Below, piece by piece: positions 1,731 to 9,615 of a stretch of 64,000 nt of DNA. Both the position numbers and the translations under genes were made by a program. The DNA is from an uncultured Candidatus Altimarinota bacterium (GTDB taxonomy: Bacteria > Patescibacteriota > Gracilibacteria > BD1-5 > UBA6164), in NCBI GenBank assembly GCA_938015455.1, contig CALLPL010000021.1, forward strand, positions 1 through 64,000. The letters run 5' to 3'. The notes under the pieces are model-generated. The model was given only the letters and a program-made list of their open reading frames with translations. It was not told the origin of the DNA and did not search any database. The stretch's first letter is position 1; the number at the start of each line of letters is the position of its first letter.

Positions 1731-1872
1731 TGAAAAATAATCATTAATATGAGCATATTATATCATATATGTGCTAAAAATCTCAAATTTCTCATATGAC
1801 CACGAGATTTCTATTAAAAAAGTACTTGTAACGCGTTACAATATGATTTTTATATAAATATTAAGTTCATTA

Positions 1873-1901
1873 TTGTTTTTTTATTTTCTGAGTATTATAT
1901 A
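1873..1901 (+). promoter_or_regulatory. Putative sigma70-like promoter of the structured RNA
   Basis: TTGTTT at 1873-1878 and TATATA at 1896-1901 are separated by 17 bp. A start some 4-8 bases downstream would fall at the first bases of the long stem beginning at 1905. The region is AT-rich, so chance matches are likely. The support is the fit to the RNA boundaries. Confidence 0.4.
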
Positions 1902-1904
1902 TGT

Positions 1905-2014
1905 GCGAAACCTAAATAACTTAACCCCACAAAATGGTAAAGATGGCGACTTGTATGCTATCTACTATTTTGTGGTTAGTTTTAGGTTTCGCGACTGTAC
2001 AAGTCGCCTTTTTT
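1905..2014 (+). ncRNA. Candidate small structured RNA with mutually exclusive stems (unknown family)
   Basis: A perfect 12-bp arm pair (1905-1916 with 1981-1992) continues inward, after small bulges, into a 9-bp pair (1927-1935 with 1967-1975). Inside, GATGGC and GCTATC (1942-1947, 1958-1963) can close a small hairpin whose loop contains GACTTGTA. The 11 bases 1945-1955 are perfectly complementary to 1998-2008, outside the main stem, giving a pseudoknot or antiterminator pairing. Bases 1991-2007 can instead form a compact terminator hairpin followed by T6. A promoter-like sequence sits just upstream and no convincing ORF covers it. It could be a free-standing sRNA or a leader controlling the lipoprotein gene that starts 35 bases later. 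I do not recognise an Rfam family. Confidence 0.6.
1991..2014 (+). terminator. Intrinsic terminator at the end of the structured RNA
   Basis: GCGACT (1991-1996) pairs with AGTCGC (2002-2007) around a 5-base loop, followed by CTTTTTT. Its 3' arm is the same sequence that can pair with 1945-1955, so formation of this terminator competes with the longer-range pairing. Confidence 0.7.
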
Positions 2015-2048: not shown

Positions 2049-2762
2049 ATGAACATAAAAACCACCTGTATTATACTAGTAATATTATTAATTTTTACTG
2101 GTTGTTGAAGAGTAGAAAATACTATTAACGATATCGGTAATATAAAAGAAGAATCAAAAACACTAACTCAAGTAAAAGAAAAAGTCGTCATTCAGAAGGT
2201 AGAAGAATCTCCAAAATTTAATCTTGAAGTGGCTATAGATAATAAATTTATAGGTTATTGAGAGGTGCTATCAGAAATAGATAGTAATTTAAGCGATATA
2301 GATATATCAATGAATGTATATTCTTTCGAATACCAAACTAGCCCTTTCAATCAAGAATATAACGGTATAGATTACAGTATGTGGTACGGTGAAACAATAT
2401 TGAGCAAAGAGCATAGTAATTCAGATTTAAATTTTTGAAAGGATATGCCTCTGAAACTAGATACAAATTGAGCTCTAAAAAATAATTTTGTCTTATTTCA
2501 CGATTCAGTTAAGAATAAAAATTTTACCCAAGCTGAGTTGAATACTTTAAAAGAAAGCCCTAACTTTAAGGATGGGAAAATTTATAATCATTGAATGGCA
2601 AAAAATGTTTTTAGTAAAGAAAAAAAAGTCAAAATTGAGTATGTGATATATAAATCAGATATAGAAAAGAATAGTATAGACTACGATAATGTATCAGTAC
2701 CAGAAATATGCAAAAAGTCTAGTAATCAAATATCTTGTAGTGCAGAAGTCACTTATAATTAG
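2049..2762 (+). CDS. Putative lipoprotein, unknown function
   Basis: This 237-residue protein has an N-terminal hydrophobic stretch ending in a lipobox-like LIFTGCG (Cys about residue 19), so it is probably exported and lipid-anchored. After the anchor comes a charged, coil-prone segment (about residues 25-60). The remaining part is rich in Asp, Asn, Ser and Lys and has two cysteines near the C-terminus that could pair. No catalytic motif is recognised. UGA codes Gly at least five times, including the residue right after the lipobox Cys. It lies 35 bp after the structured RNA and 94 bp before the 769-residue orphan, in the same direction, so a functional link with either is possible but unproven. 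Confidence 0.7.
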
Positions 2763-2856: not shown

Positions 2857-5166
2857 ATGTTGGACGATTCAAACAAAATTAAATTTGAATATTTAGAAGA
2901 CACTCTTTTAGAAATTGAAAATTTAGATAAAGAGGTTCTTTCTTTTATGTTCTTGAAAAGAGTACAAAGTTCGTTTTTTGTACTAGATTCCTCAGAGAAA
3001 TGAACTTTTGATACTTTAAGTAGTATTATTTTTGATCTTACTAAGACTGAAGTTCCTAAGGAAGTTATATTAAATATAGAAAAATGGATTTGAATAACTT
3101 GAAGTTATATATTTCCCTTTTTAAGGTCTGAGCAATATGTATATAATATAAATTGAGCTTGAAACACTGATATTGAAAATTATTTAAGAAATTTTAAAAC
3201 AGATATATATCCGTATTTGTGCATTATGCCAGTAAAGAATAAATATATTTTGTTTACTGACATAAAAGAAGAACATATTATTAAATATTTACCAAAGTAC
3301 AATTTTAACGAACTCCATAAAATTATACCTAAAATGATTGATTCGTTGAAGGATAAGGTGGATGGAAAGAAGGTAGATATAAAAGAGATGGGTGTATCAT
3401 TCCCGTTGTCAATGATATGATATCATTCACATATTCAGAATAAGTTAAAAAAATGAGTAAGTATATCTAACGATATTAGTTTTATAAATCTCATTAAGTA
3501 CTGATTGTTAGATTACCTGAAGATAAAAACAAAATATACTATATCTTTTAATAATGACAGAGAGAAAAATAAGTTCAGGCTTCACTGAAAATTATTTGAT
3601 ATAACTGAAGCAAAAATTAATAACGAAGTTCTAGAGCATCTAGAATTATTTATCGATGATATATCAATTAATTTAACAAGTTGAGAAAAAAGAGATAAGA
3701 AGGGTATTTTCAACCTTCCGATATATATAGTATCTTGAAAATACAGTTACAGAAAAGAGGATTGATATCCCTTGTTAAATTATGATTCTGTTAAAGAAAA
3801 ACTTACTCTGAAATTACCAGAGCTTCCTGAAAGTCTATTAGTGACTTGAATTTTCCCACAATATTTAAAGCTTTTAGATTGATCAGAGGTTGCTTATTTA
3901 AAGTATATGGAAGATGTAAAAAATTGAGAAGAGATTGAAGACTATGATTTTGAAAGTGATTTTTTTAAAGAAAACAAGCAATGATTTCTTCACGAATTTT
4001 TAAGAGAGATAAGAAATAGATCTACTAATATGTATACATACATCAATGAGGATAAAGGTTGAACTAACCCAAGCTTGAATGTATCAGATTTTTTCATTAC
4101 TGCTAGATTATGAGAGAACAATCAAGAATATTTACTAAACATAACTGATCCAAAAACAAAAAGAGGTAAAGATAAACATATACTAACTATTGATATATAT
4201 GAGTTGTCTTATACTGATTTTGAATGGGAAAGGATTAGTCAAAGTATAATAGATTTTGATATAGTAAAAGATTCTAAAAAAATTGGGAGTTTAGAAATAA
4301 ATGATAAAAGTAATTGAAAATATTCACAAATAAACCTTGTAAACAATATTGAGCAGATTACGGATACTGTTTTGAGAGTTGACAATATTGAAGTCACTAA
4401 AAGAAAAGGTAAGTGAAAAGTAGACTATTATAATAAACCCTCTCAATTTAAAGATTTTAAGTATATCCCTAGTGAATTGAAATTTGAGGATTTGATCTCT
4501 CTTGCATTTATAAGACTTTTGAATATTTCGACTCATTGAAATTGTGCTATGTTTTGAGGAAAGGGAATCTCATCAAAAAGCAGAGAATTAGCTGATATTA
4601 TTTCAGTAAAAATAAATAATGAAGATGTTCTTCTGGATTTATATCATATGAAGATAGCGCCTTTCACTCAAACAAAAACTTCTCTTCTAAAGTCATCCTT
4701 TAGTCAGTATACACAAGTGGTTTGACAAGCATTAGAAAAGTCTAAAGCGTTTATATATAAACAAACAATAGAAGAAGTATTTGAATGAATTGAGTCATAT
4801 TTTCTGAATAATGAGGAAAAAGCTGATAATTATGAAATATTCGAAACTATAACTAAAAAACTCCCTAGTAAGGTGAAAAATTTACACGTGGTTATTTACT
4901 TTGCCGTTAGATATGAAGACTATTTTTGACCAATAGAAAGTATTGATAGATTGAGAAAGGACACATTGGAAGTAAATTGGAAAAGATTAAAAATGATTAG
5001 TGATATTTTTAACTCTAATGTTAGTAACATTGAACTCCCTGGTTGATTTGGTATAACTCTAAAACTGGGATTAATAATATCTAAAATACCTGATGAATGA
5101 CCTTTAGGAGCAACAAATAATTCCATACATTCAATAAATGATGTTTCGAATCTATTTGTAGATTAA
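2857..5166 (+). CDS. Large orphan protein of the integrated element
   Basis: This is a 769-residue protein continuous through more than 25 in-frame UGA codons, which makes a chance ORF implausible. The sequence is acidic to neutral, Asp/Glu/Lys/Ile-rich, with no signal peptide or membrane segment, so it is likely cytoplasmic. The start ATG at 2857 is chosen because the overlapping ATG at 2849 runs into TAG. No Walker, nuclease or helicase motif stands out. The C-terminal part contains a glycine-rich stretch (LPGGFGITLKLG) and ends in an unstructured tail. Its stop overlaps by 3 bp the stop of the convergent tyrosine recombinase. It could be an effector or an accessory factor of the element. 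I do not recognise the family. Confidence 0.75.
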
Positions 5167-5771
5167 AGGGCCATTTTTGAATTTTTCTCAAGTTTTCTAT
5201 AAAAATCATCCATTTGTGAAGTAGTGTATGAGAAATACACCATAGTAGATTCTATTCTTTTGTGTCATAGAAAATATTGTAAATCTTTAATATCAAAACC
5301 CGAAGATGCAAGAGCTATTGCACAAGAATGCCTGAAAGAATGAGGATGTTTTTTATCATCAGGAATACTTGAGATTTGAGATAAATATTTATCACATAGG
5401 TGCGTAACGGTAGCTCAACTAAAAGGACGTGATATACGTGAAATAAACAGGTGTTTTTCGCTATCTTTGATGTTATATGTCCTAATATATTTATCGAGTA
5501 TCTTTTTCCTAGTTGAATCAAGACGAATAGTATTGTTTACGCTTCCTTTCTTTCGTATCACAAACAACTCTCAAGTCTGTGGATTATAATTTCATAATCT
5601 AATGAGTCCTATTTCAGAGGCACGAAGTCCACAATAATACAGGATATGAAATACACATAAATCTCTGAGATAATAAGGATTTCAGAGATCTTTTGTTTTT
5701 TCAATAGTGGAAAATATCTTGCGAATTTCTTTGTCTGTAAAGTACTTAATGACATTCTCTTGTTTTCTCAT
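5163..5771 (-). CDS. Tyrosine recombinase, catalytic domain only
   Basis: This 202-residue protein has the full active-site set: Arg50 in CGLRASE, a beta-hairpin Lys region around residues 73-75, H144-x-x-R147 in PHSFRH, His170 in LGHK and Tyr179 in TMVYFSY, nine residues after His170. Full-length integrases and Xer proteins are about 300 residues; the N-terminal SAM-like core-binding domain is missing here, and the protein starts at MRKQENVIKYFT. Such short forms can still act in inversion or cassette exchange, or be remnants. It lies in the same element as a serine recombinase, so it is either a second mobility enzyme or a DNA inversion and resolution function. The stop overlaps the convergent orphan's stop. 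Confidence 0.85.
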
Positions 5772-7455: not shown

Positions 7456-9156
7456 ATGAAAAATAGTAAAATGAATCTCGAAAATATCGAGTATGTAATT
7501 TATTGCAGAAAGTCCAGTGATGAAAGTTCAGGGAATCAAAAACAGTCGATTCCTGATCAAATAGAAGCGTGTATGAAGTATGCAGAAAATGAGTGTCTCA
7601 AGCTTATGTGAAAACCTACTGATTTTTCAGATTTTGAAACAATTAGCGATTTAAAGAAAGAAGATTTAGATAAGAGTCAGTTAAACAGGGATATCTATCA
7701 AAAGACGAGAAATTTATATATTATCAAAGAGCAAGAAACTGCGAAAATTGAATATAAAAGACCAAAATGGAGAAAGCTTATTAGTCTTGTGAAAAAATGA
7801 AAGATTAAAGGTATTCTGAGTTACGCTCCTGATAGGCAAGCGAGAAATATGCTAGAATGATGAGAGCTTATTACTCTTGTAGATAATAAGCGTGTTGCAT
7901 TGAAGTACTCAGATTTTCAATTTGAGGATTCTCCTAGTGGTAAAATGATGCTCTGAATTTGGTTCACATTATCCAAGCAGTACAGTGATAATCTTTCTCA
8001 CGTTATAACACGTGGTACTAATTCTAAAGTGAAGTCAGGAAAAGCTATATGAAGGTATAAAGCAGGATATAGAATAAATAGTTATTGATTTCACGAGCCA
8101 GATCCTAGATACTTTAGACTTATACAGGAGGCATTTCAGAAAAAGCTTCATTGAGTACCTGAATCAATTATAAAAGGCTATCTAGATGCAAATGGATATG
8201 AAAGAACTTATAAAAAACAAGGAAGAAAGGTTAAAATATCCTCTTCTATGTTGAATACGATGTTTCAAGATACCTTTTACTATGGCATATTTAAAAATTG
8301 AAGTGAGGAGTGTGACTTACGATCTCTAAGTAGTCATTATATGCCTGTAGTCTCTGAAAGTGATTTTATGCTTATAGCTCATATGCACGAGATAAACCCT
8401 ATTACTAAGTGAAAATCTAAGGTAAAAGATGATCATTCAGATGTAAGGGCATTTGAAAATGATTTTATTAAGACGGATGATAACTTTAACCTCACATTCT
8501 CAATACCCAATAAGTATAGGTATCAGAAGAAAATAAAAGAAGCTGCTAAGAGGTGAAAGATTCTTACACTTAGTGATGTTATGAAACCTCATCAGATGGT
8601 ATATACTTGTAAGCATAAAAGTAGTAAGTATAGAAATATCTCATTTAGTCAAAGAGAGATAGATAATGAAGTGATTAAGGCTTTTACTCATATAGGCGAC
8701 TGAAAAGAATTATTCAAAGAGTACTTGGCATTTTGTAATGAAGAACTCGATATATTAGAGAAAGATACACGAGAAAAAGTAAGGCTTCTCAATATGCAGA
8801 AATCTCGTTTACAGACTGAAAAGAAAGATTTTATCAAATCAGGTATGTGAGCAAAAGACGTTGAAGAACAGAAGGTTTACGATGAAGAAAGACTTTCTTA
8901 TGATAAGAAAATTGCAGTTATAGAAAGTGAAATTGAAGAGTTAGAGGATAATGAAAGAGATTGAATCTTAGAGTATGAGGTATTTACTAGTATGCTTACC
9001 AATGCTGAAAGTTACTATAAAAGGGCGACATATGTTCAAAAAGGAAAAATAGCGAAAATTTTGTTTTCGAACATAAAAATAAACACTAAAAAAAGGCTTA
9101 AGATACAGGTAAAACCTGGTCTTGAAACCTTCTTTAATTCTTCTTGGTGGAGCTAG
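7456..9156 (+). CDS. Large serine recombinase (integrase of the element)
   Basis: This 566-residue protein starts with a resolvase-type catalytic domain: VIYCRKSSDES provides the Y-x-R-x-S motif with nucleophile Ser20, followed by the KQSIPDQIEAC helix of the family. A recombinase domain (about residues 190-290, with a TFYYGIFKNG-like motif), a region where zinc-ribbon cysteines are largely degenerate (YTCKHKSSKY), and a long C-terminal coiled coil (about residues 430-500) follow, matching large serine integrases. The last codons (SSWWS, then TAG) are written by tmRNA gene DNA, overlapping ssrA by 12 bp on the opposite strand. It probably catalyses unidirectional integration at that site. Confidence 0.92.
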
Positions 9157-9615
9157 TGGGATTTGAACCCACGTGCTGGAAGGCTTGCCTGGCAATCTAC
9201 TATCATAGTTTATTTTAGGTACTTCACATGTGACGAGAAAATAAACAAAACCATGTGAGAAAGCTGTGTGTTATACGGAGTTTATGAGATACACGCTTTA
9301 AAAATCTCAAGGTCCCGGTTTAGATTAAAATAATCTTATAAGCATCTCCTAAACGCAAGTCTTGTAAGATGGTGGGCAGGCAATCGCGCTCATCTCCGGG
9401 GAGAGGCCCTTAGAAGTTCAATTAAGAAAGTCTAATTATGCAAAAACAGAAGTTCCTGCAGGAGCTTTAACGAAAGATTTAATTCCTCCGAATGCTCTTG
9501 TTAGTTTGTTTTTTCCAGTTAAGGATGAATGTGTTGATTAACGGAAGTCACAGACATCTCCCGGATAGCATGTCGGGTCAAACGAATTCTCCCAGTAGAA
9601 ACCAAGATTAGCCCC
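9145..9615 (-). ncRNA. ssrA: Transfer-messenger RNA (ssrA)
   Basis: Read on the minus strand, the 5' end GGGGCTA (9615-9609) pairs with TAGCTCC near the 3' end, followed by discriminator A and an encoded CCA (9147-9145). The T arm is GTGGG TTCAAAT CCCAC. Between them lie about 400 bases with pseudoknot-like pairings. The tag frame ends with GCT CCT GCA GGA ACT TCT GTT TTT GCA TAA around 9463-9434, so the tag ends APAGTSVFA. The resume codon is probably near 9516, roughly 100 bases from the 5' end, giving a tag of about 26 residues. tmRNA rescues stalled ribosomes and tags the product for proteolysis. The 3' end serves as an integration target of the adjoining element. Confidence 0.93.

What the first reader, a model, noticed from the sequence alone, without database searches (positions are those of the whole stretch)
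1905..2014. Compact RNA with competing stem, pseudoknot and terminator pairings
A 12+9-bp stem encloses a loop whose 11 bases (1945-1955) match perfectly a segment outside the stem (1998-2008). That outside segment is also the 3' arm of an intrinsic terminator (1991-2007 plus T6). So the RNA can form a terminator or a loop-to-tail antiterminator/pseudoknot, but not both. A 17-bp-spaced promoter starts right at the first stem base. Within a defence-type element this could be a regulatory RNA, an attenuator for the lipoprotein gene, or the RNA part of an unknown system.
Basis: seen in the sequence. Interest (0 to 1): 0.75.

Follow-up and report, generated by a model that had tools for sequence, protein, structure and literature searches.

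The report
Orphan hairpin RNA before lipoprotein gene
A very stable RNA hairpin followed by a transcription stop signal sits right in front of a lipoprotein gene in a mobile DNA element of a Gracilibacteria-type bacterium; the structure is real and one of a kind in the genomes searched, but with no relatives to compare, its proposed switching is unproven and it most likely is an ordinary kind of regulatory leader or small RNA.

Summary
The anatomy is really there: 12-bp and 9-bp stems, an 11-nt loop/tail complementarity (1945-1955 with 1998-2008) and a terminator (1991-2007 plus T6), all beyond chance (fold z -8.8; loop-tail match in 1 of 5000 shuffles; no comparable site among 427 terminators in 1.42 Mb). 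Three claims need correcting. The 'loop' is not open: it folds into an 8-bp hairpin with a 7-nt loop. The promoter at 1905 is weak (3/6 + 4/6; below the 10th percentile of a promoter model trained on this genome). The pseudoknot is not favoured energetically and is no conventional antiterminator, because either pairing puts a helix against the U-tract. No homologue was found in 353 class genomes, 342 phylum genomes, viral contigs, phages, plasmids or Rfam, so covariation cannot be tested. The lipoprotein gene 20-35 nt downstream has no promoter at the usual distance, so I favour a structured, terminator-bearing leader (attenuator) of that gene; a free sRNA comes next. New: a 29-codon, strongly hydrophobic ORF (1934-2023) runs through hairpin and terminator and stops just after the U-tract. 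It could be a leader peptide whose translation opens the terminator or, less likely, a type I toxin-like peptide.

The parts
1873..1901 (+). weak promoter-like site, TTGTTT-17-TATATA
   Evidence: 3/6 + 4/6 matches; own-genome promoter model score 4.15, below the 10th percentile of native sites; not in the consensus scan
1905..1916 (+). 5' arm of outer stem
   Evidence: 12 bp with 1981-1992
1927..1938 (+). 5' arm of inner stem; holds the ATG at 1934
   Evidence: 12 bp with 1964-1975; start codon unpaired probability about 0
1941..1963 (+). apical hairpin, 8 bp (two of them G-U) with a 7-nt loop ACUUGUA (1949-1955)
1945..1955 (+). loop segment complementary to the tail
   Evidence: exact complement of 1998-2008; 1 of 5000 shuffles
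1964..1975 (+). 3' arm of inner stem
1981..1992 (+). 3' arm of outer stem; shares 1991-1992 with the terminator
1991..2014 (+). intrinsic terminator: 6-bp stem 1991-2007, U-tract 2009-2014
   Evidence: stem energy -9.1 kcal/mol
1998..2008 (+). tail segment: terminator loop and 3' arm, complementary to the loop
1934..2023 (+). 29-codon hydrophobic ORF MVKMATCMLSTILWLVLGFATVQVAFFIC*, stop codon past the U-tract
   Evidence: GRAVY 1.86, second of 350 short ATG ORFs in the window; 1-2% of open block shuffles as hydrophobic; no homologue
2049..2762 (+). lipoprotein gene (alternative start 2034); lipobox-like FTGC
   Evidence: no clear relative in 353 class genomes and none in viral contigs

Best explanation
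The stretch 1905-2014 is the structured 5' leader of the lipoprotein gene (2049-2762) and works as a transcription attenuator. RNA polymerase starts somewhere in the AT-rich gap after the divergent Mrr gene (1731-1905); the nascent RNA folds into a long hairpin (1905-1992) and then a terminator (1991-2014), so most transcripts end at about 2014 as a stable RNA of about 110 nt. Read-through, and so lipoprotein synthesis, needs an event that stops the terminator from forming. The most concrete candidate is translation of the overlapping 29-codon ORF (1934-2023): a ribosome on it would melt hairpin and terminator and would finish 10 nt before the ATG at 2034. Shown: fold, terminator, geometry, lack of a usual promoter for the lipoprotein gene. 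Inferred: start point, read-through, role of the ORF, role of the loop-tail match.
For: Fold z -8.84; + strand much more stable than - strand (-45.2 against -35.4; G-U pairs 3 against 0). Terminator with no co-directional gene upstream to serve (Mrr is divergent), 20-35 nt before the lipoprotein start. In this genome -10 boxes peak 31-45 nt before the ATG and Shine-Dalgarno motifs are not enriched; for the lipoprotein gene that place is filled by the terminator and U-tract, where no site reaches 3.6 in the genome's own promoter model. Only 3 of 216 divergent intergenic gaps have a co-directional terminator within about 50 nt of the start codon.
Against: No homologue, so no covariation. The supposed leader promoter is itself weak, so the same model that denies the lipoprotein gene a promoter does not clearly give one to the leader. 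The main hairpin does not compete with the terminator. No ligand, protein or tRNA-binding motif is recognised (Rfam). The lipoprotein might be unexpressed cargo.
Confidence: 0.42

Rival explanations
1. A free-standing small RNA gene: about 110 nt, own promoter and terminator, acting in trans through its 7-nt loop ACUUGUA or the U-rich tail; the lipoprotein gene is separately transcribed.
For: Own terminator, compact stable fold and divergent upstream gene. The 7-nt loop is fully unpaired.
Against: Weak promoter; 20-35 nt to the next gene leaves it without a promoter at the usual place; no relatives in 353 class genomes; the core of the loop segment, GCGACTTGTA, occurs in the searched genome only here and once inside a coding gene.
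Confidence: 0.28
2. mRNA of a 29-aa membrane peptide, type I toxin-like or a small membrane protein: the start codon is locked in the stem and freed by refolding or processing. The terminator lies before the stop codon, so terminated transcripts are non-stop and would be targets of tmRNA.
For: ORF 1934-2023, GRAVY 1.86, second most hydrophobic of 350 short ATG ORFs; 1-2% of open block shuffles reach it. ATG fully paired. timP, first annotated as a non-coding RNA, is an mRNA for a toxic membrane peptide with exclusive folds and a pseudoknot (PMC11228461). arfA mRNA is made non-stop by a stem-loop in its ORF and is controlled by tmRNA (PMC3989581).
Against: Post hoc; T-rich stem arms favour hydrophobic codons by themselves; no homologue beyond chance-level matches; start context at the 29th percentile of native starts; no antitoxin RNA identified; a terminator inside the ORF is unusual.
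Confidence: 0.14
3. A DNA-level feature: a large imperfect palindrome used as a recombination, replication or protein-binding site, or a remnant of a small mobile repeat.
For: 88 bp at 73% self-complementarity; two recombinase genes nearby; GCGACT-GTAC-AAGTCGC is itself a near-palindrome.
Against: Single copy in the searched genome; U-tract and G-U pairs on one strand only; far from the integration end at tmRNA (about 9145).
Confidence: 0.1

Closest known systems
Leader attenuators and riboswitches with an intrinsic terminator (general class; riboswitch reviews such as PMC10907184 were only listed, not read)
   Same: structured RNA followed by a terminator close before a start codon, and an alternative pairing partner for the terminator arm
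   Different: no known aptamer, leader or Rfam family; the alternative helix does not move the U-tract away from a helix; no conservation
timP mRNA of the type I toxin-antitoxin locus timPR (PMC11228461)
   Same: short, highly structured RNA first taken for non-coding, start region sequestered, possible pseudoknot, small hydrophobic peptide
   Different: no sequence relation tested or claimed; no antisense partner found; terminator inside the ORF; translation unproven
arfA mRNA, non-stop by design (PMC3989581)
   Same: stem-loop or terminator before the stop codon would give a non-stop message under tmRNA control
   Different: the peptide is a bare hydrophobic segment, not an ArfA-like basic protein; the link to tmRNA is positional only

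Membership tests
Leader attenuator with intrinsic terminator | terminator between promoter and the regulated start codon | tested here: inconclusive
   terminator 1991-2014 lies 20-35 nt before the start at 2034 or 2049, but no convincing promoter upstream of it was found
Leader attenuator with intrinsic terminator | regulated gene lacks its own promoter downstream of the terminator | tested here: inconclusive
   no site at the usual distance; best site 5.9 with its -10 at 2039, too close to the ATG
Leader attenuator with intrinsic terminator | mutually exclusive antiterminator | tested here: inconclusive
   11-nt loop-tail match is real, but the pseudoknot is not favoured and still abuts the U-tract
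Known Rfam RNA family or riboswitch | score above the family's gathering threshold | tested here: not met
   none at gathering; best sub-threshold MicA 21.8 against 41
H-type pseudoknot | loop-tail helix conserved with compensatory changes | not testable with these tools
   no homologues
Type I toxin mRNA | short hydrophobic ORF in a structured mRNA | tested here: met
   ORF 1934-2023; translation itself not shown
Type I toxin mRNA | antisense antitoxin RNA | not tested
   no RNA data; no search for an overlapping antisense transcript was made
Retron ncRNA | adjacent reverse transcriptase | tested here: not met
   the only RVT_1 match in the genome lies on another contig, C33

The most novel reading that the evidence does not exclude
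The element, inserted at the 3' end of the tmRNA gene, carries a message that is non-stop by design (terminator inside a toxic membrane-peptide ORF), so that working tmRNA keeps the peptide tagged and destroyed while loss or inhibition of trans-translation releases it: a guard of tmRNA acting as addiction or abortive-infection module.
Probability: 0.03. Interest if true: 0.85.

Novelty: new member of a known kind. Interest (0 to 1): 0.33.

Why it matters
If it is a leader, it would be a rare concrete example of RNA-based gene control in a bacterium that reads TGA as glycine and shows no Shine-Dalgarno enrichment. If the hydrophobic ORF is translated, it would add a compact peptide-coding RNA to a mobile defence-type element. 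As it stands it is a solid orphan structure without comparative support.

Tried and rejected
Retron ncRNA: no reverse transcriptase near. Known RNA families: none. Further copies: blastn in the order (only AT-rich noise), phages and plasmids, exact stem and loop-tail patterns in viral contigs, covariance model R1 in 353 class genomes, in 1.25 Mb of the own genome and related elements and in 342 phylum genomes. Best other matches (19-25 bits) inspected: a membrane-protein gene region (L015), a terminator hairpin (L016), a degenerate A/T-rich hairpin (L017), palindromes flanking recA in another genome (L136); taken as chance. RNA as partner of Mrr or of the 769-aa protein: homologues elsewhere lack it. 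Structures of the 769-aa protein and of the lipoprotein: models too poor to use (pLDDT 31.6 and 39.8). Peptide homologues: only chance-level hydrophobic matches.

Full report
Setting. The window is the first 64 kb of a 71-kb contig (C21) of a genome read with TGA as glycine (NCBI table 25, SR1/Gracilibacteria). The left 9.1 kb looks like an integrative element ending at the 3' end of the tmRNA gene (9145-9615, minus strand): a serine recombinase (7456-9156, +), a core-only tyrosine recombinase (5163-5771, -), an Mrr-type endonuclease (918-1730, -), an OLD/GajA-like fragment cut by the contig end (3-794, +), an unknown 769-aa protein (2857-5166, +) and a lipoprotein gene (2049-2762, +; in-frame start also at 2034). 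The finding lies between the divergent Mrr gene and the lipoprotein gene.

The observation. All stems, the 11-nt complementarity and the terminator are at the stated coordinates. The fold is far better than shuffles (-45.2 against a mean of -19.4, z -8.84) and is the second most stable 110-nt stretch of the + strand of the window. Three G-U pairs occur on the + strand fold and none on the - strand fold, which with the U-tract points to a + strand RNA. An 11-nt match between loop region and tail occurs in 1 of 5000 dinucleotide shuffles. Among 427 terminators in 1.42 Mb two others have an 11-nt upstream partner, both A/T-rich (ATAAAGAAAAG and AAAAAGTCTTC, the latter only 11 nt upstream); none has a partner of that length as G+C-rich as this one. 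These tests are post hoc, but the structure is not a chance find.

What changes on inspection. The loop is itself a hairpin (1941-1948/1956-1963, loop ACUUGUA). The promoter at 1873-1901 is weak by consensus and by a model trained on 442 upstream regions of this genome. The loop-tail pairing needs the apical hairpin and the terminator opened: -32.9 kcal/mol for the rest plus -17.7 for the duplex, before a pseudoknot penalty, which from general knowledge is roughly 7-10 kcal/mol; the nested fold at -45.2 is at least as good. The tail begins 5 nt from the stem base while its partner is at the far end, so the long hairpin would have to bend back at the internal loop 1917-1926/1976-1980 (inference). 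Both alternatives end in a helix at 2007 or 2008 against U6, so neither is an obvious antiterminator.

No relatives. The single-sequence covariance model scores itself 147.5 bits; the best other match in 353 class genomes is 22 bits, in the other own-genome stretches read 21.3 bits inside coding sequence, and in 342 phylum genomes 24.9 bits, inspected and taken as chance. Blastn finds nothing in phages or plasmids and exact stem or loop-tail patterns find nothing in viral contigs. A 61% Mrr homologue in G051 and the only homologue of the 769-aa protein (38%, G026) have no such RNA.

Why a leader. In this genome, -10 boxes peak 31-45 nt before the ATG and Shine-Dalgarno motifs are not enriched. 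For the lipoprotein gene that interval is occupied by the terminator and its U-tract, with no scoring site above 3.6. A terminator this close before a start codon, with a divergent gene upstream, is rare here: 3 of 216 divergent gaps within about 50 nt. The simplest reading is that the lipoprotein message is made by read-through of this terminator. The caveat is that the leader promoter is not clear either.

A 29-codon ORF. ATG 1934 to TAA 2023 encodes MVKMATCMLSTILWLVLGFATVQVAFFIC, second most hydrophobic of 350 short ATG ORFs in the window; given the local base composition 1-2% of open shuffles are as hydrophobic. Its start codon is buried in the inner stem and its stop codon follows the U-tract, so a terminated transcript has no stop codon. 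It may be a leader peptide whose translation opens the terminator, or a type I toxin-like peptide, or nothing. timP (PMC11228461) shows that such an RNA can be mistaken for non-coding, and arfA (PMC3989581) that a stem-loop within an ORF can place a gene under tmRNA control. Both are leads, not tests.

Verdict. A real, orphan, + strand structured RNA with a terminator; most likely a leader attenuator (0.42) or a free sRNA (0.28). The pseudoknot switch is unproven and weaker than claimed.

Noticed in passing
window 7456-9200 and L116 (G041:C7:334000-352000): Serine-recombinase elements sit at the 3' end of the tmRNA gene here and in another genome of the same genus (recombinase about 50% identical, next to tmRNA), there followed by a DNA methylase and an HNH-like gene (the last two judged by eye): a shared integration site for defence-type cargo.
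   Followed up: partly
window 2857-5166; L010 1426-3897: 769-aa protein with only one homologue found (38%, G026); C-terminal motif KSRELADVIS...HMK...FSHYTEVVGQ looks nuclease-like by eye. No Pfam, PADLOC, PHROG or NCBIfam match at E 0.001, no PDB sequence match; structure model failed.
   Followed up: partly
L010 209-1426: Downstream of the 769-aa homologue in G026: a LexA/S24-like repressor and a Cas2-like small protein, judged by eye from the translations.
   Followed up: no
window 5163-5771: Core-only tyrosine recombinase of 202 aa, of the size and similarity of FimB/FimE-type DNA invertases (NCBIfam); no invertible segment was looked for.
   Followed up: no
window 1761-1778 and 1893-1910: Direct repeat TATYATATATGTGCKAAA (89%): one copy overlaps a strong promoter-like site of the Mrr gene on the - strand, the other runs into the first stem base of the RNA; possible shared operator.
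   Followed up: no
L136 1501-1604 and 2686-2803: A pair of similar long intergenic palindromes flanking recA in another genome of the same phylum, REP-like.
   Followed up: no
L139 (G000:C33:15557-16099): Single reverse transcriptase domain in the genome, on another contig; type not determined.
   Followed up: no
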